The notes below the pieces were generated by a model, which had not been told where the DNA came from, searched no databases, and saw only the letters and a list, made by a program, of their open reading frames with translations. Positions 1,913 through 35,170 of a DNA stretch of 64,000 nt are shown piece by piece. Within the stretch, counting starts at the first letter, position 1; every line of letters begins with the position of its first letter. Source of the stretch: Zelonia costaricensis (lineage: Eukaryota > Euglenozoa > Kinetoplastea > Trypanosomatida > Trypanosomatidae); the NCBI GenBank assembly GCA_030849075.1, contig JASAOO010003559.1, positions 1 through 64,000 of the forward strand, written 5' to 3'. Position numbers and translations under genes: made by a program.

Positions 1913-2320
1913 AACTGCGCTGATTTTGCTTGAGCAGCGAGAGTCCGACCAACACGAGTCGTGCTCCGATCACCCGCTCAACTGGCGTTTGTGAAATCGA
2001 CCCGAGCGACTGGGTGCGTCGTCTGTCCACCGCCACACCTCGCCCTTTCCGCCGCTCGGCGTGCGAGGCGTATCGCCCTCCCCGGTACGCAACCTCCGCC
2101 ACCACCAGTAGGCTGTTATGCAACTGCCTGACAAGAACGGACTACACGGTGCTCACTAGATCACAGTTGCGGTTCTCAGGACACACACACACACACACGC
2201 GCGCAGTCGTACGCGTCCATTAAAGGGACCCCGTTTTGGTTGCGGCAGAGCACGCCCCCCCCCCTCGTTCAGCATCGCGCATTGGATCGCGAGACGAGAA
2301 AAGGTAGAAGTGGGGAAGCA

Positions 2321-11481: not shown

Positions 11482-14400
11482 ATGGCGACACAGCAGCACG
11501 CGCGCCACTCCGCCGAGCAGGACGGCGAGGACGAGGTGTACGTCCGCTCCCCCCTCACCGCAGCGGAAGAGGCCTTGCAGCTCCTGCCCGGCAGCCGCTT
11601 CCTCAACACGCGCGAGTTCAAGCGCGTCTACCTCGGCCTCGATGCAGCGGCAAGCAGCAGCCGCGGCGCAGAGCAGACCCACGCGTCACCTGCGGCGGCC
11701 CTCTCAGGCACGCGGCTCGCTCAGTCACACAACCCAACGTACGCGCCGCGCCGGCCTCTCGCCAGTGCGGCATCCGCGCCGCTCCGTCGCGGCCGCGGCC
11801 GTGGAGTGACGCGGCGGCTGCGACAGCTTTACGGCGGCACGGAGGCTGCGCTGCGCGCGCCATCCACGCCGCCACCATCGCCGGCCGTGAGCGCTGGCGG
11901 CGCGGGGGTATGGAGGCTCGACCCCAGTCCGTCTGCCGCACTGGACATGCCAGGAGTGGCTGCCGGCGCCCTTCGCGACGCCCACCCGCACCTGCCACAT
12001 CAGGTGCGCACACGCGTCCGCTCCGCTCGTGCCGCCGCGGCCCCGTCGCCGGCAGCGCAGGCACCGTCCAGCAGCGGCGCCTTCTGCACTGAGGACGCCT
12101 GGCTGGCCCTTCGGCGGGAGCTGGAGGACAAGAAGCGCGAGGCACACACTCTGCAGCAGCAGCTGCGACGTGCCCACGTCGTCATACGCACCTTGCACTG
12201 TGTCCCAGAGGACGCAGTGGCTGATCCTGAAGACGTCGGCGCGGCTGCGGCAGCCGCGCCACCCCCCGCAGCTCCCGCGGCAGCAGCGCCTGCGGAGCCG
12301 GCAGCGGGCGAGTCTGCCGAGGCGAAACCGGCGGAGCCGCCGCGGCCGCGCGAGTACTGGCAGCGCCGTGCGTACTTCCTGGGGCGGCAAAACGAGGAGC
12401 TTCAAGCGGAGGTGGAGCAGCTCCGGGGCGACACGCGGACCAGCAAGGTGCACGCGCTGCTGCACGAGCTCGAGGTGGTGCGTGCCGAGCTCGTCCGCTT
12501 CCGCCGGCACGGCAGCGGGGCCACAGCTTCACGGTGGCTGGAGGTGACGCCGGTCCCACACGAGGCCGCAAGTGAAGCTGCCGACGGCGACGCGCCGACC
12601 ACCGGCGAGGAGGGGGTGGCCCTGGCTGGGTCTGTGCGGCCGCGGCTGCTGTCGGGGCGCAGCGCGGTGCCCTTCTCGCTTGCCACCGCCGTGGACGAGG
12701 CGTTTTTGCGTCAAAAGGATGAGGCGATACGCGACTTGCAGGAGCGGCTGCGGTTGCTCAGCCAGCAGTACCAGAGGGCTGACGCGGAGCGCATTGCGGT
12801 GACACGGCAGCTCGAGGACACGACGCACCGCCACACCACCCTGCAGGCGGAGTGGAAGGCGCTGTCCCGCCTGCCACAGGAACTGGCCCGCACGCAGCAG
12901 CAGCTCGCCGTGGCGCAGGCTCGCCTGGTCGACTCGGACCGGGCCGTGGAGGCGTTTCGCCAACTCTTCGATACGCTCGAGTCGCCTACCACGCTGCGCG
13001 CCGTCGTGGAAGAGCGCGACCACCTCGTCGAGCTGCTGCGCCAACGCCAGCTGAGTGAAGCCGCTCTGCGCGATGACATGAAGGCGACCCAGGAGCAGGC
13101 GCTCCAGGCTGCGGCGAGGCGCTTCGAGGAGCAGCACGGCGAGGCCCTCGCCATGGCGCACGACCGCGAGGCGCAGCAGTGTGGCGTTGCGCAAGCTCTA
13201 CACACGAAGGTCGCGGCACTGGAGCGGCAGCTCGAGGCGCAGCGCGAGGCGTACGAGACGCAGCTGGCGGAGCTGGCGCAGGCGCACGAGGCGGAGTTGA
13301 CGGAGCGCCTGCTCGAGTCGGTGCGGCAGCCGCCGGTTGGCGTCGTGAACGTGGCCGCGTCCGTGTCTGCGCTGGCCAGCGCCGCGGTCTCACCACTACC
13401 AGGGTCGCCGGACGGTGGACCGCTGCGGCTGCAGCAGCCGACAGCGGCGCTGCTGCCGGGCCTGGCCGACTCGCCGCTCTCCATATCGCCCGCCAGCGGC
13501 TCGGCGTCGCGGCAGTCTCGCGGGACGGAGTCGGTGGCGTCCAGCGCGCGGCGAGTGTCCGACTCGGCATCGTTGTCGGTATCTTTCGTAGCAGCGGCAG
13601 CCTCGGCTCCGCGGCACGGCGACGACGAGGACGACGCCACCGCGGCTGCCGCGCCGGATGCCGTGTCGTCGACGCTGTCGTCTGTGACGGACAGCGAGGC
13701 GGACGCGGAGGAGGATGTGGCGGCCGCGTCACTCTCGTCGTCTGTGTCGGCGCCGGGCTCACGCAAGCCCAGCCGCGACGGCGCACCCGCCTCGCAGGGC
13801 GTCGACATCGCGGTGCGACAGGAGTGGGTAGCCGACAGCGGCGATGACGTCGACAGTGGCAGTGACAGCGACAGCGCCACAAGCTCGGGAAGCGACGCGT
13901 CGGGAACGGCGTCGACGCTGAGCTCCGCGGCCTCCTCCGCCATGAAAGGCGAGGCGAAGGGCGGTGCGGCGCTCGGCGGAAGTGCGGCTGTCGGGAGTCC
14001 CGTGGACGGCGACGGCGACGAGACGCCAGAGAAGGACAGCGGTCCCAGCACGAACTCCTCGCTCGCCTCCGTGGGCCACCCGTTCCCGATGCCCGCTGCT
14101 GCTGCCGCGGCGAGAGAGGCGGTCACGGCCGCCTCAAGCGCGCGTGCGGCTCCTGCCGTTGGCAAGGCGACGCCCCCTGCAACGCCGGCTGGCTCGCATC
14201 GATTCGTCATGGACCTGCCAGCCGCGCCGATCGCCGTCGCGCCGCCTACGTCAATTCTCATCAACCGCAGCCTTGTCTCGGCACCCATCTTCACGCGGCA
14301 CCTGCGCGCCGTCGTGCACTCACCCACGACAAGCACAGCACCCACCGCGTCGGCTACCGAGCTCACCCAAACGCAGCAGACCCTGACCAGCACGAGCGAC

Positions 14401-15987
14401 CCAAGGAGCGGCAGCGACGACCAGGGGGAGGGGAGCTACAGCGAAGGCTCGAGTGGCAGCCGGGAGTCGTCCTCCTCCTCCGGGGTCAGCGGAACTCTCA
14501 GCGGCGCCGGCGCGCTACCAGCAGCCGCAGCGGGCGATGGGGTCGTTGCGGTGGCGAAGCAGGGCAGCTCTGTCTACTCCGGCGACCGCGTGTCGGCAGA
14601 TTCCCCGATAACGCCGGCGTTGGGGTTGCCAAGGGTTGGTGTGGTGGCGCACTCGACACCGCCGTCGCCGCCACTGGGGCCGGCGCAGCCGTCCTCTGCC
14701 GCGGCCACCTCGCTGCAAAGCGGGGGGACGCCACCGTCGCTGAGCCAGCCGTCGTCACCGAGGCTGTCTCCGCCGCGGACCAGCGCCAAGTCGCCGCCTG
14801 CGCTGTCGTCGCGCGGCGTGCCGATCCCCTCGCCGCCGGCCGTCACCCCAGTCGTCGCCTCCAACCTGTACCCCCCACGCCCCAGCAGCTCCTTCCTGCT
14901 CTTTGGTGGCGCCAGCGAAGACGAGTTTGGGCGAGGTGGGGCCAACTCGCGGCCGACCACGGCCGATCAGAACACCAGCTTCGACCTCAGCCCGCACTTC
15001 TCCGGCAACGCCTCCTTTGACTTCGTCGGCCCGCTGGCGGAGCGCCACCGGCTGGAGGAGATGCAAAACGTCTCGGGCGCGTCGTCGCAGCAGCCCTCGC
15101 CCCGCTCCGTCGGCGCCGCCTCGGGGGTCTCCGCCTTTTCGAGCGGGGCCCCGCAGGGCCGCTCCGCCCCCCCGGGGTCGCAGGGGATGGGCACCGGCGC
15201 GTCGGGGCTGCGCAGGACGCCGTCGCCCCCGCTGGTGCTCGTCGCGGCGCACTCGGGCAGCGCCGTCCCTGTGCCTGCGGACGACGACGCGTCTGGCGGC
15301 AGCGCGAGTGCGAGCGCGTTGGAGGTGTCCGTGCCGGATGGCGACGACGACGACGACACCGCTTCCAGCATCTCGGCCGAGCGCGTGACGGCCGGGACGC
15401 GTGAGCGGCAGGAGGCGCCGCCCCGCCGTGGTCGGCTCGTCTACGCCGGCACGACGGCGAGCGGCGGTATCGCCTTCACCACCCCACGTGGCGAGCCCGT
15501 GACGGCGTCGCTGTCCCCGCTGCCACCGAGGCCGGCCACGACGACGGGCTCGTCGGGCGCGAGCAGCCTCAAGCGCAGTCCCATCCCCGCCAACTTCCCG
15601 CCAGACGACAACACACCCATGTCGCTCCCGCTCGACGCTTCTGCGGCGGGCAGCGTCGCCGAGCGGCCGATTCCCGCCGCTGTGGTTCCCCCACCTCCGC
15701 CGGCGACCTCAGTTCCCTCGCCGCCGCCACTGCCGCCGTCGTCCTCCTCTTCCGCAGTGCCGCCGCCGCCCGCCGCGGCCGTGCCCTCCCGACCGCCCCC
15801 GCCGCCGGCACTCGTCCCGTCCCCGCCCACCCCCGCAGCCCCGCTAGCTCCCCTTCCCCCGATGGTGGCAGTGCCCTCGCCACCGCCGCCGCAGACCTCT
15901 GCGCCGCCAGCCGCTCCACCGCTCCCAGCCGGTCTCGCGCCCCTCCCGCCGCGCGTCGAGGTGCCGCAGCCGCCCGCGGGGGAATAG
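11482..15987 (+). CDS. Large coiled-coil protein with Ser-rich middle and polyproline C terminus, function unknown
   Basis: 1,501 residues from the ATG at 11482; the frame is open to 11305 without an upstream ATG, so 11482 is the first Met. Residues about 20-55 are compositionally normal (EDEVYVRSPL, then LNTREFKRVYLGLDA). Helical, heptad-like segments lie at about 206-235, 290-340 and 400-620, rich in Gln, Glu, Arg and Leu, and typical of a long coiled coil. Residues about 620-1,400 are Ser/Ala/Asp-rich low complexity with acidic clusters. The last 100 residues are repeated proline runs of up to five, separated by Ala, Ser and Val, like a formin FH1 segment or a ligand for profilin, SH3 or WW domains. 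No FH2 or other catalytic domain is visible. It could be a cytoskeletal or flagellar scaffold, but that is inference only. Confidence 0.8.
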   Translation: MATQQHARHSAEQDGEDEVYVRSPLTAAEEALQLLPGSRFLNTREFKRVYLGLDAAASSSRGAEQTHASPAAALSGTRLAQSHNPTYAPRRPLASAASAPLRRGRGRGVTRRLRQLYGGTEAALRAPSTPPPSPAVSAGGAGVWRLDPSPSAALDMPGVAAGALRDAHPHLPHQVRTRVRSARAAAAPSPAAQAPSSSGAFCTEDAWLALRRELEDKKREAHTLQQQLRRAHVVIRTLHCVPEDAVADPEDVGAAAAAAPPPAAPAAAAPAEPAAGESAEAKPAEPPRPREYWQRRAYFLGRQNEELQAEVEQLRGDTRTSKVHALLHELEVVRAELVRFRRHGSGATASRWLEVTPVPHEAASEAADGDAPTTGEEGVALAGSVRPRLLSGRSAVPFSLATAVDEAFLRQKDEAIRDLQERLRLLSQQYQRADAERIAVTRQLEDTTHRHTTLQAEWKALSRLPQELARTQQQLAVAQARLVDSDRAVEAFRQLFDTLESPTTLRAVVEERDHLVELLRQRQLSEAALRDDMKATQEQALQAAARRFEEQHGEALAMAHDREAQQCGVAQALHTKVAALERQLEAQREAYETQLAELAQAHEAELTERLLESVRQPPVGVVNVAASVSALASAAVSPLPGSPDGGPLRLQQPTAALLPGLADSPLSISPASGSASRQSRGTESVASSARRVSDSASLSVSFVAAAASAPRHGDDEDDATAAAAPDAVSSTLSSVTDSEADAEEDVAAASLSSSVSAPGSRKPSRDGAPASQGVDIAVRQEWVADSGDDVDSGSDSDSATSSGSDASGTASTLSSAASSAMKGEAKGGAALGGSAAVGSPVDGDGDETPEKDSGPSTNSSLASVGHPFPMPAAAAAAREAVTAASSARAAPAVGKATPPATPAGSHRFVMDLPAAPIAVAPPTSILINRSLVSAPIFTRHLRAVVHSPTTSTAPTASATELTQTQQTLTSTSDPRSGSDDQGEGSYSEGSSGSRESSSSSGVSGTLSGAGALPAAAAGDGVVAVAKQGSSVYSGDRVSADSPITPALGLPRVGVVAHSTPPSPPLGPAQPSSAAATSLQSGGTPPSLSQPSSPRLSPPRTSAKSPPALSSRGVPIPSPPAVTPVVASNLYPPRPSSSFLLFGGASEDEFGRGGANSRPTTADQNTSFDLSPHFSGNASFDFVGPLAERHRLEEMQNVSGASSQQPSPRSVGAASGVSAFSSGAPQGRSAPPGSQGMGTGASGLRRTPSPPLVLVAAHSGSAVPVPADDDASGGSASASALEVSVPDGDDDDDTASSISAERVTAGTRERQEAPPRRGRLVYAGTTASGGIAFTTPRGEPVTASLSPLPPRPATTTGSSGASSLKRSPIPANFPPDDNTPMSLPLDASAAGSVAERPIPAAVVPPPPPATSVPSPPPLPPSSSSSAVPPPPAAAVPSRPPPPPALVPSPPTPAAPLAPLPPMVAVPSPPPPQTSAPPAAPPLPAGLAPLPPRVEVPQPPAGE

Positions 15988-17204: not shown

Positions 17205-20200
17205 ATGGCGTCACCAGCCGAGCGGCGCGTCGAGCTCACCTCCTCGACGCACCTTCTCTCCGCAGGGTCTGCCAGCCTCAACGCCACCGCACGCCGCGGT
17301 CACGACGCCGCTGCATGCATCTGCGCCCATCTCATCGTTCACCACGGGCTGAGCCGCGTGCGCGTCGCCCAGGCTGTGGGTCTGCCCTCGCTGGTGGTGG
17401 AGGAGTCGATCCGCAACGGTGTGTCGTCTGCCACCCTGCGAGCCCAGCTGCGCAACTGGCTCTTCGAGGCGTCCAGCGCTGCCTCACCGCAGAAGCTGCG
17501 CGTGCCCGACGCACTCTTCACCCAACTCCAAGAGGACTGCGCGGCAGATGAGCTTGCGCGCCAGCAGGAGCACGGCCAGGGCAACGGCGCGGCGGCCGCG
17601 TCGGTAGCGGACGACAGGTCGCCGTTCTCCGCGCTGGACCCCATCTCGCAGCACCACTTCCGGCAGCTGCAGCACTCGGTTGGGCAGAGCTTCATCTCCA
17701 TCTTGAACGACCCAGGCGAGCCGACCACCAACGTGGACTGGTCGACCTGGCTCGGTGGCAAGCTGTACGAGGCGTTCGACTTCAACGGACGGGTTGGCGG
17801 GCTGGAGGAGGTGCTGCGCGCCTACGCGGCGGGGCAGACCGGCCCGGAGTCCTCTGCCGCGCTCCTGGCCGAGTATCCGCCGTCGCAGGACTTCAGCGGG
17901 TACGTGCGGCTCATCTCCGAGGCGTACCAGGTGAACCGCCGCGAGGGCATCGTCAACGATGCGCGGGAGTGGCGAGAGGACGGCGCGCTCGACGGTGTGG
18001 GCAGCCGTGCCCACGTCGGCTCAGCCACGATGGTGGATGGCGGCCCGTGGCCCACCGGCGTGCCGCGCCACTTCTTCGCCGCCGCCTACAACGCGGCAGC
18101 CGAGCTGCAGACGCTGTCCGACGCCGTAGGGGAGTCCCTGCCGGCAGCCGCCACGTCCCCCCACTCGAGCTCGCCGCACCACCCCGCCACCGCGTCCAAG
18201 CCGGCAAGCAAGGCGCCGAGCAGCGACAGTCGCAGGGGCAGCAACACGAACAGTGGCGGTGCCGCCCATGGCGCCGCTGCTGCGCTCCCGACGCAGGTGG
18301 TGGACAACTCCACCTTTGCGGTGGACTACGAGTACCTCGAGAGCCGCAACAAGGAGCTCCGAGCGTGGGAGTCGGCGGTCGAGAAGTGCCTGCTGCAGCA
18401 CGTCAAGCACCGCAGCGAGGACTTCTTCGCAACCTCGCGCACCTTCGGCACCCTCAGCGGCGACGCTCGCGCTGTTCTGGCCGACGCCCGCGAGGCCCGC
18501 GAGGGTGGCATGCGCGCTGGCGAGCACTTCATCGCCGAGTATCTCCGGATCGGGCAGCTGTACCGGCGGCGGCAGAACTTTGTGCGACTGCAGGCGACCG
18601 CGACGACGGCGCAGCAGGTGCTGCAGCGCCTCCGCAACGTGGAGAACTGGGCCGCGCTGCCGGAGCGCGACTTGAGTGAGGTGCTGACCATCTCCTCCGC
18701 CCTCGTCGACCTCGAGACAGTGGTGCGCGGTGCCAAGGACGCGGAGCAGGGCATCGCCTGGGCGTCGCTGTCGCGGCTGCACTGCCTGGCCGAGGTCCCG
18801 GCGCGGGTGCGCGCCGCGCGGAAGGCGATGGAGCAGGTGGTACTCGGGGAGTACTGCCGCGTACTGCTTAGCGACTTGAGCGCCGGCGAGGCGGGCCAGC
18901 GCGTCGCCGCCGTATGCGAGAGCGTCACGCGCCTCGGCGTACTGAACGCGGCGAACCACCTCTACCTTGTAAAAGCGGTGGAGCTGCTGCAGGTGACAGC
19001 GCAGGAGTCGCTCGTGGGTCTCTTCATGAACGCCGGTGCCCTCGACGACGCAAAGGCGAACGAGCTACTTGCCGTAGCAGGCAACGCCGTCGCCCTCGCC
19101 CTGCCGGACGCCCGACAGCAGCTGTGCGGCTTCGCCAAGTACCTCCGCTTCCCGAGCTACCAGCAGGTGCTGCAGCAGTTCGTCGACGGTCTCGTCGACT
19201 TGGTGACGCAGGTCTCGCAGAACTGGGGCTTTTTCGTCACGGGCGGACTGCGTGTGGCACTCGCGATGTTCGACAACCGCCACACCATGATCGAGGCCGC
19301 CACGCGCGACTTGTTTGGCCGGCTGTGCGGCGAGGCCGAGTCCCTCATCGCGTCTCTGCTTGAGGCGTACGCGACCAGCGGCCCACAGCTCACCTCGATG
19401 GCCGAGGCGGCACAACTGGCCCGCGTCAGCGTGCAGTTTCCGCTGCGCATTACGAGCGACGTGGCGGGCCGCATCGTGTCGCTCTTGCGCGAGGAGGGTG
19501 CCGGCGACGCCGCCCCGGGCGCGCCGCCCTCCCCGCACGCCGTCGCGGCCGACGAGCCAGGGGGCTTTCGTGTTTACCGGCCCTCGCGTGTGATTGGCAC
19601 GACGCTGCAGCGAGTCGCAAAGCGCTGCTTTCGCAACCAGCACATCCTCAACAAGGAGCGGGTGGCGATGGTAACGGAGGGGGAGACGTGGGCGGCGAAG
19701 GAGGCTGTCGACGCCGCCATTCAGCAGCAGGTGGAGGACATGTGCACCGTGGCACCCGCCGCGCTGCGCGCCTTCCGGCTGCGCTCTCTGCAGGCCCTCG
19801 CCCCCTCCGGCGACGCCGCCGGCGACGGGCCGCACCACCGCTCTCACCACCGTTCCGTCAGCCGCAGCCTCGCCACCCACGACGCCGGCGTGGCGGACGA
19901 CGAGCTCCTCAGCGCGGGTGCGACAAAGCTGTACGTGCGGGTGCGCGACGGCAGCGTCGCCAGCGGTGATGGCGAGGCGGCGGAGGAGCAGGAGCAGGAG
20001 GGCCGCATCGTGCCCAACTCTCTGCTGGTGCTCGTCGACCTGCTGCACCGCTACCACGACTGCGTTGCCCTCTTCCCGTTTCTCGCCTTCGACGTCGCCT
20101 CGCGCATGAGCGAGTTGCTGGACGCTTACGAGGGGCAGGCCGCCGCCATGGTGCTCGGCGCGCGTGCCGTGGAGAAGGGCACGCTGTCCACCATCACGAC

Positions 20201-20951
20201 CCAGCACCTCTGCGTAGCCTCTCAGTGCGTCGCCTTCCTCATCGAGTTCATCCCCGCTCTGCAGGCGCACTTGGCAGCTGCTCTGCAGGGCAGCGCTCTC
20301 GACGCCTCGCTGCGTGGCCGCGCACCACGTGACGTGTTGGAGGTGGCCAACGCTCTCGGGCTTGTTGCCGCAGCCGTGCTGCCGCCGTCCGACGCCGCGC
20401 CGGAGAAGGCGAGGCTCTTCATCGACAACGACTGGAACCGCGTCGTGCGCAATAGCCGTGCACACCGCAACGAGTTCTTCTCCAAAATGGGCTCGCTGGT
20501 GTACCGCAAGGTGGAGAGCCTCGGCACCGTGTCGGTGCAGAAGGGGCGGTGGTCGGCTGGCGGCAACGAGTGGGTCATGGCGATGCTGCGCGAGGTGGCG
20601 CGGCTCATGCGCGCCTTGCGGCCGCTGCTGCCACCGGGTGACATGGACGGCGTCGTGGTGCCGCTGCTCGGGTCCCTCAGCGTCATGCTGCGCGAGGTGA
20701 CAGTCCGCATTCCAGCCACCGCGGGCGACGAGCGCGCCACCGCCGCCTCGGACGCGATGCTCTTCCGCGCCAACGTTGAGAAGTTCGGCTACGACGTGCT
20801 CAAGTGCGCCGAGGTGACCTCCGTGGCCGCGGTGATGCAGGGCGGCACCTCCTTTGCGCCGGCGTCCACCGAAGAGGCGGTGCTGCGGTGGTTTCTGCCG
20901 CCGCCTGCTGCCCCGAGCAGCCCGGCAAAACCGACTGGCGGGGCACCGTAG
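17205..20951 (+). CDS. VPS54: VPS54, GARP tethering complex subunit
   Basis: 1,248 residues. VPS54 is a subunit of GARP, the tether that receives endosome-derived vesicles at the trans-Golgi. The C-terminal third is diagnostic. MSELLDAYEGQAAAMVLGA runs into TITTQHLCVASQCVAFLIEF and IPALQAHL at about residues 965-1,030, matching in order the LSDLL, LVLGAGAL, KTITTKNLALSSRCLQLI and IPVIRAHF blocks of human VPS54. It is followed by a helical segment (FFSKMGSLVYRKVESL, then WVMAMLREVARLMRALRPLL). The middle (about 370-620) is predicted to be all helical, as in other rod-shaped tethers. Low-complexity inserts, Ser/His-rich near 320-360 and 870-900, separate the helical parts. The N terminus (1-300) has no clear counterpart that I can name. 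Confidence 0.84.
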   Translation: MASPAERRVELTSSTHLLSAGSASLNATARRGHDAAACICAHLIVHHGLSRVRVAQAVGLPSLVVEESIRNGVSSATLRAQLRNWLFEASSAASPQKLRVPDALFTQLQEDCAADELARQQEHGQGNGAAAASVADDRSPFSALDPISQHHFRQLQHSVGQSFISILNDPGEPTTNVDWSTWLGGKLYEAFDFNGRVGGLEEVLRAYAAGQTGPESSAALLAEYPPSQDFSGYVRLISEAYQVNRREGIVNDAREWREDGALDGVGSRAHVGSATMVDGGPWPTGVPRHFFAAAYNAAAELQTLSDAVGESLPAAATSPHSSSPHHPATASKPASKAPSSDSRRGSNTNSGGAAHGAAAALPTQVVDNSTFAVDYEYLESRNKELRAWESAVEKCLLQHVKHRSEDFFATSRTFGTLSGDARAVLADAREAREGGMRAGEHFIAEYLRIGQLYRRRQNFVRLQATATTAQQVLQRLRNVENWAALPERDLSEVLTISSALVDLETVVRGAKDAEQGIAWASLSRLHCLAEVPARVRAARKAMEQVVLGEYCRVLLSDLSAGEAGQRVAAVCESVTRLGVLNAANHLYLVKAVELLQVTAQESLVGLFMNAGALDDAKANELLAVAGNAVALALPDARQQLCGFAKYLRFPSYQQVLQQFVDGLVDLVTQVSQNWGFFVTGGLRVALAMFDNRHTMIEAATRDLFGRLCGEAESLIASLLEAYATSGPQLTSMAEAAQLARVSVQFPLRITSDVAGRIVSLLREEGAGDAAPGAPPSPHAVAADEPGGFRVYRPSRVIGTTLQRVAKRCFRNQHILNKERVAMVTEGETWAAKEAVDAAIQQQVEDMCTVAPAALRAFRLRSLQALAPSGDAAGDGPHHRSHHRSVSRSLATHDAGVADDELLSAGATKLYVRVRDGSVASGDGEAAEEQEQEGRIVPNSLLVLVDLLHRYHDCVALFPFLAFDVASRMSELLDAYEGQAAAMVLGARAVEKGTLSTITTQHLCVASQCVAFLIEFIPALQAHLAAALQGSALDASLRGRAPRDVLEVANALGLVAAAVLPPSDAAPEKARLFIDNDWNRVVRNSRAHRNEFFSKMGSLVYRKVESLGTVSVQKGRWSAGGNEWVMAMLREVARLMRALRPLLPPGDMDGVVVPLLGSLSVMLREVTVRIPATAGDERATAASDAMLFRANVEKFGYDVLKCAEVTSVAAVMQGGTSFAPASTEEAVLRWFLPPPAAPSSPAKPTGGAP

Positions 20952-21705: not shown

Positions 21706-24700
21706 ATGCGCCGTCTCGTCCCGTGTGCGCTGGCGCATCCGCCGCGGCTGACGTCGACGCCACTTGCGGTGCCTGCCCGCCTGCAGTCCTCACTGCGCGA
21801 CACCCCTCGTTTCGCTGCCTCTTCCAGCAAAGACGCGGCGCGCACGGACGATGAGGTCACGTCCTCCTTCCCGGGTGACCCTGCGGCGCAGCTGCCGCCA
21901 TCTCGCCGGCGCCGCGGCACGGGCGCGGTCGATGCACTACTGACCGACGTCCTCACCCTCGGCAAGCGCGTCGCCGACGAGCAGCAGCGCCACCGCGTGT
22001 CCATCCCTGCCTCTCAGCTGGCCAGCCTGCGTCCGCCGCCGCGTGGGGGTCCGCCCACGGCAGAAACCGCTGCAAAACCGACGGAGCCGCCAATTTCTCC
22101 ACCGCCGCGGCAAAACGCAACGGTGCGGCTGCGACGTGCAGCGGCACTGTCGCGCCCTCCACCGCCCGCCCCGCCAACCACCGCCCCGCCGCCGCTGCAG
22201 TCGTGGACGCCGTCGCTGGTGCTCACGCCCGAGCAGCTGCGGGCCACTGCGGCTGCGCACACGGCGTCTGACATCGCCTTCACCCTCGAGGAGCTGGAGA
22301 ACACGCTCTTTTCGCCCGACGCCGACGCTGCGAGAGACGGCGACGGCGATGGCGTTCCTCAGGTGACGACAGCGACTGCGGCCGAGGCGTCTGCGGCGCC
22401 CGCCCCAGAGCACCCCGAGGCTGCTGCGCCGCCGCCAACACCGCCTCTGCCTCTTCCAGCGCCCGAGGCGATGCCAAGCGGCGCCGCACCGGCGTCACTT
22501 CCACTGACGCCTCCTGTCGACGCCTCGCCCGCGCGGGGCACCAACGCCACTCCTTCACCCGTGGCAGCGACCGTGCAGTCGTCGCCGGCTGCGGCCCCGC
22601 CAACGGTCGCCTCGCCGCCCGTCCCCGTGGTGCGATGCCGCCTTCGCGGCGCGGCGGTGGTGGTGCAAGTGACTCGTGCGTCCCCCGCGCCTCGCGCGCT
22701 GCTGGAGGCACTTCAGGAGGCGGTCACCTTCGCAGAGTCGCTGCCGCCGCAGTCCGAAGGGCCGCGCGAGGTCCGGCTTGGCCTCGCCGAGTCCGCGACA
22801 AGCAGCGGCGCCACGCATGCCTTTGTGGAAGCGGATGGCTGGATCGAGGTGACCAGCAGCGGCGAGGAGCGGGCCGCGGTGCAGCTGCTCAAGGACCGAC
22901 TCCTGCGGCGACTCGCGGAGGGTCCTGCGCGCGGGCTGCGGTACGTGGCGGAGCTGCGCGTGGGCGGGGATGTGGGCGGCGACATTCACGGCCAAGCGAT
23001 GGCGCCGCTGCCCCTCGTCGTGCGGGACACGGCGGCGGAGCTGCTGCTGGCGTGCACGGCGCTGGATCTGCGTCACCGCGAGCGGCCCGACGCGGGAGTG
23101 GACGCGTCAGCGGTGCGACTCTCCTTCAGCGGCATCGCCGTCGGCGTCTTTCCGGCGCCCGCCACGGTGCAGCGCGTCACGCGCGTGGTGCGTGCTGCGT
23201 GCGCCAGCGATGGTGGGCGCGAGGCGCTGTGCGTCCCGCACCTCCGCGCTGCCGCGAGTGCGACGCCGTCGGAGCTCGTGGCGGCTCTGATGCCGCAGCT
23301 CCACCAGCTGCCACACACGGCGTCTTCTGCGCTTCTCGCCGGCTGCGTTGGCGCACGCAGCAGCAGCAGCAGCGCGACACCGACGCTTGGTAAAGCGAAC
23401 ACCGCATCGCCTCACTGGGCGGCCACGCTCCGCGAGACGGCGCGCGGGTGGTGGTGTCGGGTAGCACAGGCGTGCGGTGTCGGCAAGGCATCACCGGCGG
23501 CGTCGTCGACGGCGTGCGCTGCTGCTCCAGCGGCCTGCGTGACCGCCACGGACGTGTGGCGTGCCCTGTGCGCGGCCACGGCGGCGGCACACCTCACGGA
23601 GGACGCAGTCTGGCAGGCGATCAACACAGCAGCGCACGCGGCGCCGGTTTGGAGGTGCGCGCAGAGCTACCGGCGGGTCACTGCGCCTGCCCGCGTCGAC
23701 TCCGGTGCGGCTCCTGCGCTGCCGCTCGTGGTGAACGTGACGGCTGCCGCGCTGCAGCGCGCGTCGGTGGCCGATCTTGCGAGCGAGGTGCGGGAGCAGC
23801 CGTCCGACGTGGTCCTCGTCCTCGCCGAGTCGGTGCGGTTGCAGCAGAAGTTGCAGTTCCTCGCATCCTTGCACCTCATCGACACCGGCAGCCACCACTG
23901 CGTGACGGTGCTGCTCCCTGGCGACCCGGGCACGCTGGCCGAGTGCGCGTCGCTCACCGCGTCGTCGGCGTGCATGACCCCGCAGTTGCCTTGTGGTGGC
24001 CGATGCGGGGCAGCTGTGCCCCTGTACAGCGATGTGCACTGGCTGCAGCACCTGGTGGAGGTGAGCACCGCCACCACCGGCGCCGCACGTGCCACGTCGG
24101 CAACGTCGACGGTGGGCGAGGGTAGTACTCCCGTGACTCTCGCCGAGGCATACGTCACGCAGACGTGGCGCCGCCCGTGCGTGGCGACCGCGTCGGGCAC
24201 GGTCGGGTTGGCGATGTCGGCGGCTGTGGCCGTGGCGTGGCAGCGACTCGCCGCCCCGGGGACGGCCGCAGGCGGCCAGGCGATGCGGCGACGGCGCGAG
24301 TTCCAGCAAACGCACCTCGCCCCGCTCGTCCTCAGCTCGGCTGGAAGCGGGACGGACACGGTCGTGGCGTGGTGGACCGCCACCGCCCTCTCCGCCCCAG
24401 CCGCCAACGAGGATGGCGCAGCGCAGCCCGCCTCCGTGCCGGCACTGATGAAGCGCCTCGGTGCTGCGTGGCCGGCGTCGCCGCCTCCGTTGCGGGCCTC
24501 CACCAGCGCACAGGGCGGCGCAGCAGGGTGCGGCGTGGCGTTTCTGTTTGCGCTGGATGCGGCGTGTCAGTGCCTGCAGCGCCGCCACGCTGCCTCGCCG
24601 GAGGCGCTGAACGCGCTCTCTGTTGCGGCCCTCGGTCTGGACCCCTCCGCCGGCGGCATCCTCACCGTGGCGGACCGTCTCGCCGGCGGCGACGGCGTGG

Positions 24701-24864
24701 ACGAGGTTGTGGCCGCCATGGAGGATGCCGCAGCGATGCACGGCATCAACTTTGCCAGCCTCCCGCTTCTCCGGTGGATGGTGGGGGAACGCCTGCTCTT
24801 GTACCAGCTGACCACCGCCGTGCTCGACCGCTTTGCGAGCGCGCAGCCTCCTGAGACGGCGTAG
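21706..24864 (+). CDS. Probable mitochondrial trifunctional-enzyme alpha-like pseudoenzyme (ECH + HAD folds, active sites lost)
   Basis: 1,052 residues; ATG 21706 begins an Arg/Ala/Leu-rich, mitochondrial-type presequence (MRRLVPCALA). Residues 40-300 are Pro/Ala-rich. From about 308 the sequence follows the enoyl-CoA hydratase/isomerase pattern: CRLRGAAVVVQV strand, AAELLLACTALDL (443-455, where active enzymes have GGG-x-E-LALAC) and RLSFSGIAVGVFPAPATVQR (471-490, where active enzymes have GLPEV-LG-PG-GGTQR). From about 700 it follows 3-hydroxyacyl-CoA dehydrogenase: DVVLVLAESVRLQQKL (701), AVPLYSDVHWLQHLVEV (about 769, active: G-H-FSP-), PCVATASGTVGLAMS (about 824, active: VVVKD-PGF) and a C-terminal LGLDPSAGGILTVADRL. 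One ECH Glu is kept (445); the other is Gly476, the oxyanion glycines are gone, and the HAD His is absent. Fold assignment is my alignment by eye. Confidence 0.6.
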   Translation: MRRLVPCALAHPPRLTSTPLAVPARLQSSLRDTPRFAASSSKDAARTDDEVTSSFPGDPAAQLPPSRRRRGTGAVDALLTDVLTLGKRVADEQQRHRVSIPASQLASLRPPPRGGPPTAETAAKPTEPPISPPPRQNATVRLRRAAALSRPPPPAPPTTAPPPLQSWTPSLVLTPEQLRATAAAHTASDIAFTLEELENTLFSPDADAARDGDGDGVPQVTTATAAEASAAPAPEHPEAAAPPPTPPLPLPAPEAMPSGAAPASLPLTPPVDASPARGTNATPSPVAATVQSSPAAAPPTVASPPVPVVRCRLRGAAVVVQVTRASPAPRALLEALQEAVTFAESLPPQSEGPREVRLGLAESATSSGATHAFVEADGWIEVTSSGEERAAVQLLKDRLLRRLAEGPARGLRYVAELRVGGDVGGDIHGQAMAPLPLVVRDTAAELLLACTALDLRHRERPDAGVDASAVRLSFSGIAVGVFPAPATVQRVTRVVRAACASDGGREALCVPHLRAAASATPSELVAALMPQLHQLPHTASSALLAGCVGARSSSSSATPTLGKANTASPHWAATLRETARGWWCRVAQACGVGKASPAASSTACAAAPAACVTATDVWRALCAATAAAHLTEDAVWQAINTAAHAAPVWRCAQSYRRVTAPARVDSGAAPALPLVVNVTAAALQRASVADLASEVREQPSDVVLVLAESVRLQQKLQFLASLHLIDTGSHHCVTVLLPGDPGTLAECASLTASSACMTPQLPCGGRCGAAVPLYSDVHWLQHLVEVSTATTGAARATSATSTVGEGSTPVTLAEAYVTQTWRRPCVATASGTVGLAMSAAVAVAWQRLAAPGTAAGGQAMRRRREFQQTHLAPLVLSSAGSGTDTVVAWWTATALSAPAANEDGAAQPASVPALMKRLGAAWPASPPPLRASTSAQGGAAGCGVAFLFALDAACQCLQRRHAASPEALNALSVAALGLDPSAGGILTVADRLAGGDGVDEVVAAMEDAAAMHGINFASLPLLRWMVGERLLLYQLTTAVLDRFASAQPPETA

Positions 24865-25532: not shown

Positions 25533-26090
25533 ATGGTGCTCAACAAGTGGGCCGTGGTGACCAAGAGCGCGCCGCCGGCGGCTGGGCTGCGCCCGCTCGC
25601 CCGCATCGTCTCTGCCAACCCGAAGCTCCGCCCGGCCGACTACAAGGTGCCGTACGTGCTGCGCCCCTTCATCAAGGAGCGGCACCTGAGCGAGATGCAG
25701 CACGTCGAGAACCGCGGCATGTACCGCGAGGAGCTTGCGATTGAGCGGTCCCGCTTTCCACGGATGCACAAGACGCTGACTATCCACACGGACGGCTCGC
25801 TGAACGAGCGCGAGTTCGAGTTTGCCGTGCCGCCGGTGGTGACACTTTTCCAGGACCGCCTCGCCGCCCACCGCCAGCGCCAGGTGGCGCTGGCCAAGAT
25901 TGGCAAGCTGCGGCGCGCCAGGAGCTGGGAGACGCCGCCGCAGGGGAAGGAGCCGCTCAACCCGGTGTGCAATGCGCTTGTCTTTCCGTACTGCGTGCCC
26001 AAGAAGATGCTGGTGCGCCCGCGCATCGTCGACCCGCTCAGCGCGAAGAGCATGGCGGACAGCCGCAGCCGCGACGACGACGCCGTATGA
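25533..26090 (+). CDS. Small basic protein, function unknown
   Basis: 185 residues, not recognised. The frame is well used: normal amino-acid composition, no low-complexity tracts, a clear ATG and a GC-rich third position, so I take it as a real gene. The N terminus (MVLNKWAVVTK) is short, basic and hydrophobic and could be a mitochondrial signal. The body is charged, with aromatic and proline residues (YKVPYVLRPFIKERHL near 38-53). A basic helix lies at about 110-130 (RLAAHRQRQVALAKIGKLRRAR), followed by a VFPYCVPKKMLV segment near 150-161. The Arg/Lys content and size would suit a mitochondrial ribosome or RNA-processing component, but no family signature is visible. The C terminus (DSRSRDDDAV) is acidic and probably disordered. 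Confidence 0.75.
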   Translation: MVLNKWAVVTKSAPPAAGLRPLARIVSANPKLRPADYKVPYVLRPFIKERHLSEMQHVENRGMYREELAIERSRFPRMHKTLTIHTDGSLNEREFEFAVPPVVTLFQDRLAAHRQRQVALAKIGKLRRARSWETPPQGKEPLNPVCNALVFPYCVPKKMLVRPRIVDPLSAKSMADSRSRDDDAV

Positions 26091-27107
26091 CGAGGTCCCC
26101 ACGTTTTTCTCTGTGCGTTAGCGCGGCGGTGACCGTACGCCGGTACGGTGTTGTGTCTCACATGGAGAAGTGCAGCAAGCAAGCAAGCAGCCAAGGAAGA
26201 GGGGCAGAGTAGAAGGGGAGGTGACGCTGATGCCGCAAATGCACCTTGTCTCCATCGCCGTCGTCTTCAGGGGTTTGTCTGCGCTTTCAAGGAAGCCGGC
26301 GCCACACGCAAACGTGGTGGTTGTTCGCGGGCTGTGGTGCTGTCCCGCGTTTTATGCGCCGTTGCAGCCCTCTACGCTTCACTGCCATTTCTGCCTTCTG
26401 CCTCTTCACACTAACGCGTAAATGGGGCACTCTGCTTTTCACTCGTCGCCCGCACTCTCCTCACCCACGACAATGACACGTGCGCGTGTCGCCATTTCAC
26501 TTTTTCACATCACTCACACCTCACTCACACCAACATTAACGCGCGCGCACTAGCTTCTAGGATAACACCGCTTCTCAGAGCTCCTCTCCTCTTCTGCTTG
26601 GAACAGCACAAGAAGCAAAAAGAAAAAAAAGCAGTTGCCTCCATCACATCTGCTCAACTCATCCGTCACCCCCCCCCTTGCTCTCTATCGCCAACCACCC
26701 GATCTTTCACCTCGCTCTCAACTCGCTGTGCTGAATTCACTGTTATTGAACCTTATCGTCGGTGCCTCTCTTGTGGAGCTGAGCTCGCGTCACGTAGCCT
26801 CAATCTAAACTTGTACGCCCCCCCTTCTTCTTTTTTTTTTTTTGCTCTCCGTGGTGCGACCCGCTGTGGGGGTTGCTCACCTGGTCGAGAGAACTCCTTC
26901 TTCAGTTTTCTCGTAGCAAAGAAGAAACCGGCTACACGGTGCTGTGTTTTGCACCCTCGGCGTCACCCGCCGCCGAGCCTCTTTGACCTCTCATCTCCGC
27001 GTGTGCACGTGTGTGGACGTGTCTGCCTTTCTGCTCTCCGTCTCCCCGTTTCCTGTCTCAGGCCGTTTTGGTTGTTTACCGTTAAAAGGCGAAGAGGCAA
27101 GGAAGTG
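26091..27107 (+). other. Intergenic region, 185-residue unknown to Apd1-like gene
   Basis: No gene seen. A run of about 13 T near 26831-26843 is followed by further T-rich tracts, and AG at 26904-26905 is one plausible acceptor. The forward frame from 26598 runs into the next gene but crosses these tracts and is not taken as coding before 27108. Confidence 0.6.
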
Positions 27108-27875
27108 ATGGAGGATTCGAACTCGTTCGAGGCGGTGAAGCCGAAGCTGACGAAGCAGACGCTGCAGGACATCGAGGGCCTTGACCCCCAGCGCTACGGC
27201 TTCGGTCGTGCGGAGTGCTGTGGCCCGATTCCTGCGAAGATTATGGGCAGCATGAAGTTGAGCGAGCACATATTCCTCAACACCCGCATGCCCGCCACGG
27301 AGTGGGACAAGCGGACCGAGAACGTTCCGGGCTACAAGGAGCTGAGCCACCACGTGAAGCGCGCCTGCCCCGAGGCGAGCTTCACCGTCTCACACCTGGA
27401 CAGGGACACCGAAGATTCCATCCTCCACTTCAAGGTAGACGATGAAAGGAAGGCGGTGGCGATCACGCAGTACTGCGGCATCGCCGAGCCGTACGAGCTG
27501 CCGTGGAACACGAGGGGCACGCTCGCGGTGGATCGCTCTGGCGAGTATTTCATCTTCATTTGCGCGCACTTCACGCGCGACGAGCGGTGTGGCTACTGCG
27601 GCGCTGTCTTGATCGACCTCTTCCGCCACGCCATTGCGGAGACCATGGGCCCTGGCGGGGCGGAGCGGGTGACGGTGTACCCGTGCTCGCACGTGGGCGG
27701 CCACATCTACGCCGGCAACGTCATCATCTATAGCCGCCACGGCGGTATCTGCTACGGCCTTTTCAAGCCAGAGGACGTGCAGACCGTCGTGAATGCGATC
27801 GCCGAGGACAAGGGAGCCATCCCTCCATCCCTGGCAAACCGCATCCGTGGTCAGATGGGGCCCAATATCGCCTAG
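27108..27875 (+). CDS. Sucrase/ferredoxin-like (Apd1/Aim32-type) thioredoxin-fold 2Fe-2S protein
   Basis: 255 residues. The C-terminal half carries the family signature: CAHFTRDERCGYCG (about residues 151-164), followed some 40 residues on by CSHVGGHIYAGNVIIY. In yeast Apd1, two Cys of the first motif and two His spaced as in H-xxx-H hold a 2Fe-2S cluster in a thioredoxin-like fold. Both His are present here with that spacing (SHVGGH). The N-terminal half (ECCGPIP, then HIFLNTRMPATEW) matches the part that precedes the ferredoxin domain in this family, with a CCGP-type Cys pair. ATG 27108 is preferred because the sequence before it is pyrimidine tract. Likely role: redox or iron-sulphur function in cytosol or mitochondrion; the partner is unknown. 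Confidence 0.83.
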   Translation: MEDSNSFEAVKPKLTKQTLQDIEGLDPQRYGFGRAECCGPIPAKIMGSMKLSEHIFLNTRMPATEWDKRTENVPGYKELSHHVKRACPEASFTVSHLDRDTEDSILHFKVDDERKAVAITQYCGIAEPYELPWNTRGTLAVDRSGEYFIFICAHFTRDERCGYCGAVLIDLFRHAIAETMGPGGAERVTVYPCSHVGGHIYAGNVIIYSRHGGICYGLFKPEDVQTVVNAIAEDKGAIPPSLANRIRGQMGPNIA

Positions 27876-31799: not shown

Positions 31800-33871
31800 G
31801 ACGACGCGTTTGGGCGCAAGGTGAAAGCTCGCCAGCACCGCTCTGCTCCTCGGGAGGGAAGGGGGGGGGGGGGGCTCTGTCTCTCCTCTGGCATACCGCG
31901 CGTTTTACGAAGCTACAAGGCTTGCAGCTCACCTTGACTCCTTGTTTTTCTGTCTTCGTGAGCGCGAGCACAGCACGTGCAGTGCCACAGCTGGAACGCT
32001 GGCCTCGTCTTGTTTTTTTTCCCCCGCTGCTGCTGCTGCTGCTGCTGCTTCATGGCGTTTGCTGCACCGCGCCACCTTGCACGGGCGCCACCTCGCTCTC
32101 TCCACAGTCCTGTCCCCCACTCGGCACCGTGAGGCACACCTCTCCGGCGATCGCTGGTTGGGGGCGCGCTCCGCCGCCGTTCCATTGTGCTCGCACGCGC
32201 GCCTATTCTCGCTTACCTGGGTCTCCGCGACACTGGCACAACACTCTGCTATCCTCCCTCTTCCACCCCCCCTCTTCTCCCGCTTCATTTTTTTCTTTGT
32301 GCGTGACGTGGAACTGTAGCAGGCAACGCGGCGGTAGGCGCGCGTGAGTGTGCAGGCGCAAGTCACGGTAGCGGCCGCCGACGCCTAACGGAATTGCCGA
32401 AGTGGCGTGGCAGGAGAGGTGGAGTGGCGTGAGCCGCACCCACGCCCTTTTCTCCTCCAGCGCTCCTTCTCCTCCTTCCACCCAGCACCCACGTCCCAAA
32501 CGACAATCGGAGAAGTGGGCTTGCGATGCTGGGCCAAGTGCACAAGCCGCGTATGGACCGTCTTTTTTGTCCCTTTCTTTTCCTCTGCAGACCGTGCCCT
32601 GGTCCCGGTGCGTCTGCGCGTGTGCTTGTGTTTCACAGGTGCAAGGAGGAGGAGACGGAAGACGACGGCGAGGGGGAGGCTCCTTGGTCCGCCCCTTGTC
32701 CGTTTCCTGGCGCGCTTCGAGTGTTGTTTCTGCGAGTTGCCTTCTCGTAGCGGAGTTGTTGCAGGAGCTTCTCACGAACCGAGAACAACAAAAAAGATGA
32801 CTTGGTGCGGTGGGAGAAGTTGGAATCGTGGCGCTGATGTGGCTCGTGGCACGTCAGAAGCGCCACATGAAACCCCCTCCCATCCCCCCCTCCAACCCTC
32901 ACACTACCGCACCTCCTTTTGTCATTCCCCCCTTTTGCCTTTTTCTTTTCTTGTCTGTGCACCATCTCGCTTTCGTGAGATTTTCGTGCCTGCGTGGGTG
33001 ACGTCTTTCCCCACTCCCCCCCCCCCCGAACCTGCACCCCTGTGTGAACTAGCGCCCAAGACGGGGCTTTTGCGTACGACAACAACAGCAACAGAAGAAG
33101 AAAAGAAAAGAAACAAACACACACACACTTGGAAAGCCGTGTTTCGCCAAGGCTGCACCGAGGTGAGCGGCGGGAAAATGACTTGGCCTTTTCCACCCTC
33201 CCCTCTTGTACTTGAGAGGCGTCGCGCACGGAGTGTGGACGGCTCCGTGGCCGTCCTCGTGACAATGAGGCTGCGCGCAATGCGAAATAGTGACCGCGGG
33301 TTGCTCTGTGGCTGACCTGGGGGGGCAGGAGGTACGAGAGACCGGCAAAACACTATGCTGCTGCGCGTGACTGGCCATCCGACACGCCGCTCGCATTGCA
33401 GCGGAGCACTGAGGTGGAGGTGCTTGAGTCGTATGCCAAGTCCCAGCTGCAATCGAAAACGACTCTTCGATATGGCGCTCGTCGCGCAGATTAGTGTCCC
33501 TCTCCTCCCTGTCCTTGTATCTGATACCCAAGAAAACACAACAAAAACGCGACCTCGACGTTAACGAGACAGGGCACAAGTTCGTCGTGAACTTTTTCGC
33601 TCGCATACAGGAGGGCGCTTTTGTCCTTTGAAAAGGAATCGGAAGCGGTTTGGAAGCGCCACACACACACACACACAAAAGAGAGCACAGAGAGCTACCT
33701 CCCGCACTTCCAGGGTTCAGGCTGCAACACGTGTTAATTCTGCCGCACGAAATCAAAAACGCACATCAGACTTCCCGCTCCTCCCCTCTCAACCCCCCAC
33801 CCCCGCCCCGTACGAAGGCTACCCCGACAGCAACGCCAACGCCATCCCCTCCACTTACTCTCAGAGTGATC
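31800..33871 (+). other. Intergenic region, kelch gene to nucleoporin gene
   Basis: No credible gene. G run near 31861-31873, T run near 32012 followed by a CTG-repeat stretch near 32024-32049, C run near 33019 and a CA run near 33662-33678. The forward frame 32407-33315 is translated pyrimidine tract. Confidence 0.6.
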
Positions 33872-35170
33872 ATGAGCGACGCTCCCCGGAAGCGCGTCGC
33901 GGGTGACCAGCTCACTCGCGACGACGACGGCGATGACCGTGCCGACGCCGAATTTGCGCAGACACCGCAACTCGCAGATGACGCAGAGATGGCGACTCGG
34001 CGTGTGTTGCGTGTGCGTCGCCCCGGCGAGCCGGCGCAGCCGGCGCCAAACGCGTTCGCCAGCACCGGCTTTGCCTTTAAGGATGCCTCAGCCAGCGGGT
34101 CGGCGACGTCTGCGGTGAAGCCGTCGTTTGGGTTCGCGGCTCCAAGCGGCGGAGGCGGCGGCACTGCACCACCGGCCTTCTCCTTCAACGCGCCTGCCTC
34201 GTCGCCGGCGTCGTCGTCTTCCACGGCAGACGCAAAGGCGCCGCCCTCGTTCGGCTTCGCAAGCGCGGCAAAGCCCTCCAACCTGGCGGCGCCCAGCGGC
34301 TTCACCTTCGGCAGCGCCACAAGCAACGCCAGCACGTCGCCGGCCAGCACCGGTACCAGTACCGCCACCACCACCACGCCCATGTCCTTCTCCTTCGGCG
34401 CGCCAGCAAAGCCCACGACGACGCCGTCGACGGGCGGCTTCAGCTTTGGTGCCACCACGGCTGCTGCTGCTGCTGCTGCTGCCCCGTCTTCCGCGGCCAG
34501 TGCGCCCACTACCAGCGGCAGTGGCGGTGGCTTCAGCTTCGGCTTCACCCCAGCGGCGAAGCCGGCACCTGCGAGAACGGACGACGCGGCACCCACCTCG
34601 TCTAGCGCGCCGGCCCCGCTCTTCGGGGCCGGCAGCTTCAACTTCGGCATGGCGGTCAACAGCTTCGTCGAGGCGCGCAAGAAGATGGAGGAGGAGAAGC
34701 AGGACAAGAAGAGTGACAGCGAGAACGACGACGACGCGGATGCCCCCAAAGACGACGCGGACGGCAACGGCTTCGGCAGCGAGGTTGTGGCGCAGACGGC
34801 GCGCGACGTGCTGGCTAGCGGACCGTCGAAGCTCTTCTTGTTTGAGAACGGCGAGGCGGGGGCGGCCGGTCGCTGGGTGGAGCGCGGCACGGGTGAGGCG
34901 CGGCTGATCGCCGAGGAGAAGAAGACCGAAGCCGGCACGCACGTGCATCGCCTTCTGGTCCGTGCCGGCTACGCACTGAACGCCACGGTGCGCAAGAGCC
35001 TCTTCACGCTGTCCAAGACGGAGACCAAGCACCTCGTCATGGCCGTCGCCACGGCGGAGGGGCCCCACACGTACCTCCTCAAGTTCACCGGCGCCAACGC
35101 CGAGGCGAACACGGCCAAGTTCTCTGAGGAGATCAAGAAGATCATGGACGCTGCCGGGGAATCGAGCTAA
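33872..35170 (+). CDS. FG-repeat nucleoporin with Ran-binding domain (Nup50/Nup2-like)
   Basis: 432 residues. The N terminus (MSDAPRKRVAGDQLTRDDD) is short and charged, as in Nup50/Nup2, where it binds importin alpha. Residues about 60-270 hold some eight FxFG-type repeats (FAFKDA, FGFAAP, FSFNAP, FGFASA, FTFGSA, FSFGAP, FSFGAT, FSFGFT, then FNFGMA) in Ser/Ala/Thr/Pro linkers. An acidic Lys/Glu/Asp stretch follows (about 270-300). The last 120 residues look like a RanBP1-type domain: KLFLFENG, then GRWVERGTGEARLIAEE, HRLLVRAGYALNATVRK and TYLLKFTGANAEANTAKFSEEI. This order (basic N terminus, FG repeats, RanBD) is that of Nup50 and yeast Nup2, mobile basket-side nucleoporins that bind Ran-GTP. 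The frame is open upstream, but ATG 33872 fits best. Confidence 0.85.
   Translation: MSDAPRKRVAGDQLTRDDDGDDRADAEFAQTPQLADDAEMATRRVLRVRRPGEPAQPAPNAFASTGFAFKDASASGSATSAVKPSFGFAAPSGGGGGTAPPAFSFNAPASSPASSSSTADAKAPPSFGFASAAKPSNLAAPSGFTFGSATSNASTSPASTGTSTATTTTPMSFSFGAPAKPTTTPSTGGFSFGATTAAAAAAAAPSSAASAPTTSGSGGGFSFGFTPAAKPAPARTDDAAPTSSSAPAPLFGAGSFNFGMAVNSFVEARKKMEEEKQDKKSDSENDDDADAPKDDADGNGFGSEVVAQTARDVLASGPSKLFLFENGEAGAAGRWVERGTGEARLIAEEKKTEAGTHVHRLLVRAGYALNATVRKSLFTLSKTETKHLVMAVATAEGPHTYLLKFTGANAEANTAKFSEEIKKIMDAAGESS

What the first reader, a model, noticed from the sequence alone, without database searches (positions are those of the whole stretch)
21706..24864. Decayed trifunctional-enzyme alpha subunit kept as a full-length gene
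Enoyl-CoA hydratase-like and hydroxyacyl-CoA dehydrogenase-like segments occur in the order of the mitochondrial trifunctional alpha subunit, including the C-terminal GG-x-LT-AD-L block. But the oxyanion glycines, the second ECH glutamate and the HAD histidine are replaced, and a 260-residue Pro/Ala-rich leader is added. The frame is intact over 1,052 codons, so selection keeps it. It may be a structural or regulatory pseudoenzyme, for example in a mitochondrial complex.
Basis: partly seen in the sequence, partly recalled or inferred. Interest (0 to 1): 0.75.

Follow-up and report, generated by a model that had tools for sequence, protein, structure and literature searches.

The report
Dead fatty-acid-oxidation enzyme kept in trypanosomatids
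In relatives of Leishmania, a gene descended from a fatty-acid-burning enzyme has lost parts needed for catalysis yet is kept and conserved, so it has probably been given a new, non-enzymatic job, most likely in the mitochondrion.

Summary
The frame is real: 21706-24864 (+), 1052 aa, in a trypanosomatid genome. A capped search found 17 relatives; the 13 with an organism name are Leishmania, Porcisia, Leptomonas or Novymonas, all 'hypothetical'. Pfam, NCBIfam and PDB sequence searches give nothing significant. The C-terminal block matches a trifunctional-enzyme alpha (TFEa) profile at E 2.4e-9, 0 of 100 shuffles as good. A predicted model's best PDB matches are TFEa chains (E 4.0e-5, but TM-scores only 0.22-0.26), with a crotonase-type front domain. 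No sequence test supports the NAD-binding domain. In 15 of 15 aligned rows the oxyanion glycines and second hydratase glutamate are replaced.

New here: the genome holds two TFEa genes over Pfam cut-offs and a second decayed TFEa-like gene, P0019, grouped with this family at 92/99. Two islands in the leader are as conserved as the best core parts.

Best reading: a non-catalytic TFEa descendant serving as a mitochondrial scaffold or assembly subunit. Ancestry is well supported; location and role are inferred.

The parts
21706..24864 (+). whole open frame, 1052 aa, decayed TFE-alpha-like protein (P0001)
   Evidence: 17 relatives
21706..21795 (+). residues 1-30, basic N-terminus without acidic residues, possible mitochondrial presequence
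   Evidence: 4 K/R and 0 D/E; the 14 other rows of A1 have 3-9 K/R and 0-2 D/E, P0003 counted from an internal Met; no predictor run
21925..22020 (+). residues 74-105, conserved island A in the leader, predicted helix at 74-96
   Evidence: mean pairwise identity 0.67, 9 of 32 columns invariant; helix in the low-confidence full-length model
22192..22314 (+). residues 163-203, conserved island B in the leader
   Evidence: mean pairwise identity 0.68, 14 of 41 columns invariant; flanking linkers 0.32 and 0.29
22618..23385 (+). residues 305-560, crotonase (enoyl-CoA hydratase) fold domain
   Evidence: 16 of the first 25 ten-residue blocks of the model at pLDDT 70 or more; Foldseek and VIA-align matches; semi-global profile alignment; local hhalign not significant
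23026..23040 (+). residues 441-445 (DTAAE) at the place of GGGFE of the active paralogue; first catalytic Glu kept, oxyanion glycines lost
   Evidence: E445 in 15 of 15 rows, 441-444 never Gly; A443-E445 aligned with GFE by hhalign, 441-442 by ungapped extension
23122..23166 (+). residues 473-487 (SFSGIAVGVFPAPAT) at the place of GLPECMLGLLPGGGG; second catalytic Glu replaced by G476
   Evidence: S473, F474, G476, I477, G480, P483, P485, T487 invariant in 15 rows; register from hhalign
23719..24072 (+). residues 672-789, segment at the place of the NAD-binding domain; strongly conserved within the family, homology not shown by sequence
   Evidence: residues 672-760: identity 0.68, 28 of 89 invariant; not significant
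24538..24813 (+). residues 945-1036, C-terminal hydroxyacyl-CoA dehydrogenase (C2) block with the GG-x-LT-x-AD-x-L motif at 983-992
   Evidence: range from hhalign; domain against domain E 2.4e-9, prob 96.2%, 0 of 100 shuffles as good; 0 of 300 shuffles and 0 of 118 reversed controls

Best explanation
The gene encodes a catalytically dead descendant of the alpha subunit of the fatty-acid trifunctional enzyme. It keeps the crotonase fold and the C-terminal dehydrogenase block. It has lost the oxyanion glycines, the second hydratase glutamate and any GxGxxG nucleotide-binding motif, and has a long leader, probably disordered, with two conserved islands that may be docking sites. It most likely enters the mitochondrion and works as a protein-protein scaffold or assembly subunit, possibly together with the second decayed paralogue P0019, much as the crotonase-type protein mS47 was recruited into the kinetoplastid mitoribosome. 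Shown: the C-terminal homology, residue replacement, conservation, two TFEa genes and a second decayed gene in the same genome. Supported by model and one profile method: the crotonase fold. Inferred: loss of activity, mitochondrial location, scaffold role, pairing with P0019.
Against: The NAD-binding and first C-terminal domains are not supported by sequence. Without the C2 block the whole-length alignment scores 10.6, and 130 of 151 circular shifts and 1 of 300 shuffles do as well or better. Local hhalign of the crotonase part is below its reversed control. The whole-length Foldseek matches have TM-scores of 0.22-0.26 and rmsd 14.5-22.6. Mean pLDDT of the core model is 56.6, and 304 of 752 residues are under 50. 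E445 and E785 (of LVEV) are kept in 15 of 15 rows, so chemistry or ligand binding is not ruled out. Pairwise BLAST does not set P0019 nearer to this family than to TFEa: best 40.0 against 39.7 bits. No localisation, interaction or phenotype data. The L. tarentolae relative matches no solved chain, so a place in the solved mitoribosomes has no support.
Confidence: 0.5

Rival explanations
1. Regulatory pseudo-subunit of the working TFE complex: it pairs with the active mitochondrial TFEa or with the thiolase beta subunit and tunes or anchors the complex through its leader islands.
For: TFEa-type C-terminal block kept; a TFEa with its motifs and Pfam domains is present; found so far only in Leishmaniinae-type species, and Leishmania has a mitochondrial TFEa while African trypanosomes lack it (PMC4262433).
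Against: No interface data. Orthologues elsewhere could have been missed, because only the 7989 to 7991 candidates sharing most words were scored in each search. Several core blocks change fast (0.22-0.37 identity).
Confidence: 0.25
2. Acyl-CoA or nucleotide sensor: catalysis is lost but ligand binding in the crotonase pocket is kept, with E445 and the invariant residues of loop 473-487 forming a new binding site.
For: E445 and eight residues of the 473-487 loop are invariant in 15 rows.
Against: Loss of the glycines that in hydratases hold the thioester (recalled); pocket not modelled well enough to test.
Confidence: 0.12
3. A still active but strongly altered enzyme using another mechanism.
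For: E445 and E785 kept in 15 of 15 rows; His at the hand-aligned dehydrogenase position in 6 of 15 rows.
Against: Second Glu and oxyanion glycines replaced in 15 of 15 rows; no GxGxxG in the window's protein.
Confidence: 0.08
4. Unrelated alanine-rich protein whose resemblance is due to composition and to bias of the structure predictor.
For: No Pfam match better than E 0.12 in any of 15 members; local hhalign of the ECH part no better than a reversed query; low TM-scores.
Against: The C2 block beats all composition-preserving shuffles; it also links to P0019, itself a clear TFEa relative.
Confidence: 0.05

Closest known systems
Mitochondrial-type trifunctional enzyme alpha subunit (HADHA / FadB / FadJ type; here the paralogue on contig C242, L012)
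   Same: Order crotonase then dehydrogenase; C-terminal C2 block; first hydratase Glu; similar core length
   Different: Oxyanion glycines, second Glu and GxGxxG absent; no Pfam match; about 300-residue leader with two conserved islands; NAD-binding domain not recognisable by sequence
P0019, second decayed TFEa-like protein of the same genome (contig C60, L071:2524-6690:-)
   Same: Basic N-terminus, Pro/Ala-rich leader, second Glu lost (PSC where the active enzyme has PEC), C2 block; grouped 92/99 in the C2 tree
   Different: Less decayed (TFE profile E 1.2e-24, PF00725 over its cut-off); leader of repeated Pro/Ala units; 28-34% identical in the C2 block to most of the family
mS47, crotonase-type (ECH_2) protein of the kinetoplastid mitoribosome (here L070:414-4016:-)
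   Same: Crotonase-type protein recruited into a mitochondrial assembly, with large additions
   Different: From the hydroxyisobutyryl-CoA hydrolase branch (molecule name of a related chain), no dehydrogenase match; the window's protein matches no solved mitoribosome chain

Membership tests
TFE alpha subunit | N-terminal crotonase fold | tested here: met
   Foldseek and VIA-align on a predicted model; semi-global profile alignment 0 of 300 shuffles and 0 of 256 reversed controls; local hhalign alone not significant
TFE alpha subunit | C-terminal 3-hydroxyacyl-CoA dehydrogenase block | tested here: met
   hhalign E 2.4e-9, 96.2%, 0 of 100 shuffles
TFE alpha subunit | NAD-binding domain with GxGxxG | tested here: not met
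   No GxGxxG in residues 660-760; profile tests not significant
TFE alpha subunit | Oxyanion-hole glycines and both hydratase glutamates | tested here: not met
   First Glu kept in 15 of 15 rows; no Gly at 441-444 and Gly for the second Glu in 15 of 15; register, 441-442 by ungapped extension
TFE alpha subunit | Dehydrogenase catalytic histidine (HFFNP) | tested here: inconclusive
   Hand register puts it at residue 773: Leu here, His in 6 of 15 rows
TFE alpha subunit | Curated family cut-offs (Pfam, NCBIfam) | tested here: not met
   0 families; in 15 members two one-member hits at E 0.12 and 0.14, to unrelated families
TFE alpha subunit | Complex with TFE beta (thiolase) | not testable with these tools
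   needs co-purification
Mitoribosomal protein | Chain present in solved kinetoplastid mitoribosomes | tested here: not met
   L. tarentolae relative P0011 matches no PDB chain at E 10, while bL31m and mS47 of this genome find chains of entries 7aih and 7ane; that these entries are L. tarentolae mitoribosomes is recalled
Mitochondrial matrix protein | Cleavable basic presequence | tested here: inconclusive
   3-9 K/R and 0-2 D/E in the first 30 residues of 15 rows; no predictor or localisation data
Pseudoenzyme | Catalytic residues replaced while the sequence stays under constraint across species | tested here: met
   by protein conservation only (no dN/dS); absence of activity itself not tested

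The most novel reading that the evidence does not exclude
Leishmaniinae mitochondria hold an unrecognised complex built around two sister dead TFEa paralogues (the P0001 family and P0019) that pair as TFEa subunits do and whose island-bearing leaders recruit partners: a beta-oxidation enzyme turned into architecture.
Probability: 0.25. Interest if true: 0.7.

Novelty: new variant of a known kind. Interest (0 to 1): 0.5.

Why it matters
Enzymes turned into structural parts are a known theme of trypanosomatid mitoribosomes (PMC12885271, one passage seen), with mS47 as an example in this same genome. I found no printed description of a whole two-enzyme TFEa polypeptide kept after losing its active-site residues, within the ten paper searches made in a library of openly licensed papers. 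The less decayed P0019 offers a readable intermediate of that decay. The family is carried by human pathogens such as L. donovani and L. major as an unnamed hypothetical, so its annotation would be improved.

Tried and rejected
Ordinary TFEa: rejected on residue replacement and absence of Pfam matches. Pseudogene or chance frame: rejected because 17 relatives of 732 to 1174 residues were found. Mitoribosome subunit: no support, as the L. tarentolae relative matches no solved chain; an assembly factor is not excluded. Orthologues in Trypanosoma or other kinetoplastids: two profile searches found none beyond the first list, but only the 7991 candidates sharing most words were scored, so absence is not shown.

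NAD-binding part against the TFE profile by hhalign, by my own profile alignment, and against P0019: all negative. Circular-shift controls keep part of a true match and so test order only: whole core 0 of 177 as good, without C2 130 of 151, ECH 16 of 216, C2 0 of 78. The first AlphaFold run, with the leader, was poor (mean pLDDT 42.0) and was not used for fold search. Which TFEa (mitochondrial or glycosomal type) gave rise to the pair is not resolved; the C2 tree has long branches and 6 of 22 inner branches well supported, the 92/99 branch not among them. PMC3021533 (passages) reports possible Ufm1 conjugation to a mitochondrial TFEa of L. donovani; nothing there shows it to be this gene. BLASTP of the family against TFE sequences gave C-terminal hits of E 7e-4 to 0.03 in a very small database, taken only as a lead.

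Rows dropped: A1 used 15 of the 18 proteins (left out P0006, P0010, P0012); A2 had 17 rows (left out P0012). The TFE profile used 15 sequences: two paralogues, L014 and L051-L062. Of the 27 loci only L014-L016 gave a + frame of 600 residues or more; I left out L015 and L016, and L042 and L044 gave no row. Only 12 of the 50 listed plasmid hits were fetched. The identity blocks leave out the near-copy P0002. The tree used 9 of the 15 family rows.

Full report
What is there. The frame runs from ATG at 21706 to TAG ending at 24864 on the + strand, 1052 residues, no internal stop. The window lies in a 28.7-Mb, 755-contig genome. It is trypanosomatid: downstream at 25533-26090 is the mitoribosomal protein bL31m, best solved match a chain of entry 7aih at E 2.6e-106 (that this entry is from L. 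tarentolae is recalled), and the best relatives of the frame are Leishmania and kin. Upstream at 17205-20951 is a Vps54-type protein. Because GC is 66-73% here and long antisense frames exist, frame length proves little. Conservation does: 17 relatives, 13 with an organism name (Leishmania, Porcisia, Leptomonas, Novymonas), every given name 'hypothetical'. The taxonomy lists the first three genera in Leishmaniinae.

What it descends from. Curated-family and solved-sequence searches fail; the one chain is a fatty acid oxidation alpha subunit at E 0.96. Profile comparison succeeds for one block. Residues 945-1036 (range) align with the last 3-hydroxyacyl-CoA dehydrogenase domain of TFEa at probability 96.2%, E 2.4e-9 for that one comparison, and 0 of 100 column-shuffled controls reach the score. 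The crotonase part aligns in the right order (residues 308-496 with 75-243 of the active paralogue), but local hhalign does not make it significant: 18.6 against 20.2 for the reversed query, 7 of 100 shuffles as good. A semi-global profile alignment does: 19.8, with 0 of 256 reversed-and-shifted and 0 of 300 shuffled controls as good, though 16 of 216 forward circular shifts, which keep part of a true match, do as well.

What is broken. In the active paralogue (L012) the hydratase motifs read GGGFE and LPE...LLPGGGG. Here A443-A444-E445 stand against GFE. E445 is kept in 15 of 15 rows and 441-444 hold no Gly in any. The second Glu stands against G476, Gly in 15 of 15. No GxGxxG lies in residues 660-760. 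At the hand-aligned place of the dehydrogenase histidine (773) the window has Leu; 6 of 15 rows have His. E785 of the LVEV stretch is kept in 15 of 15.

What is conserved. Mean pairwise identity among 14 rows is 0.57 in residues 305-500, 0.68 in 672-760, 0.64 in 941-1045 and 0.22-0.49 in the other core blocks. The leader is 39% Pro+Ala over residues 36-300, but residues 74-105 and 163-203 reach 0.67 and 0.68 between linkers at 0.32 and 0.29. This is the pattern of short docking segments in a disordered arm (inference). N-termini are basic with few acidic residues, which fits but does not prove mitochondrial import.

Relatives in the same genome. Two TFEa genes are over the Pfam cut-offs: L012 on contig C242, with its motifs and Pfam domains, and one on C602. 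This agrees with one mitochondrial and one glycosomal TFEa reported for Leishmania (PMC4262433, passages and section 21). A search with PF00725 hit these two, a 429-residue frame on C524, and contig C60. C60 encodes P0019, 1389 aa, with a basic N-terminus and a leader of Pro/Ala units (62% Pro+Ala in residues 36-640), a crotonase part reading VGFPSCRVGLFPSTAT where the active enzyme has VGLPECMLGLLPGGGG, and a C2 block. It matches the TFE profile at E 1.2e-24 (one sequence searched). The family's crotonase part and C2 block each match P0019 better than all controls (ECH 25.8: 0 of 256 and 0 of 200; C2 25.0: 0 of 118 and 0 of 200). A C2 tree of 25 rows puts P0019 and nine family members on one side of a branch at 92/99, against 15 TFEa rows. 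Branches are long, so attraction of long branches is possible, and pairwise BLAST does not separate the two (best 40.0 bits to the family, 39.7 to a TFEa). P0019 is thus a less decayed relative, probably a sister, and a useful link between the family and real TFEa.

How it most likely works. Shown: the C2 homology, residue loss, conservation. Supported: the crotonase fold. Inferred: no catalysis, mitochondrial location, scaffold role. The nearest precedent is mS47, identified here on contig C481 by its match to solved mS47 chains and holding an ECH_2 domain. The window's protein is not in solved structures, as far as its L. tarentolae relative shows. I prefer a scaffold or assembly subunit, perhaps paired with P0019, over a regulator of the working TFE complex, but no result here separates the two firmly.

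Verdict. It is a new variant of a known kind (repurposed metabolic enzyme), of moderate interest.

Noticed in passing
L071:2524-6690 (-), contig G000:C60: Second decayed TFEa-like protein, 1389 aa, with a Pro/Ala-unit leader; second hydratase Glu replaced by Ser; one ambiguous residue in the leader.
   Followed up: yes
L070:414-4016 (-), contig G000:C481: mS47 of this genome, a 1201-aa mitoribosomal protein with an ECH_2 domain.
   Followed up: partly
window 25533-26090 (+): bL31m, mitoribosomal protein, downstream of the frame; neighbourhood carries little functional meaning in trypanosomatid gene arrays (recalled).
   Followed up: partly
window 2240-3235, 17205-20951, 26598-27875, 33650-35170, 56718-58322: Ras-type GTPase, Vps54-type protein, sucrase/ferredoxin-like protein, NUP50-type protein and ABC1-type kinase by Pfam.
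   Followed up: no
window 11305-15987, 40784-43432, 43692-46355, 59377-62370: Long open frames without a Pfam match at 0.001.
   Followed up: no
G000:C709:35087-37761: Two crotonase-family matches lie close together on one contig, perhaps tandem copies.
   Followed up: no
P0003 (Leishmania donovani relative): About 80 extra N-terminal residues before the Met that aligns with the start of the others; perhaps a start annotated too far upstream.
   Followed up: no
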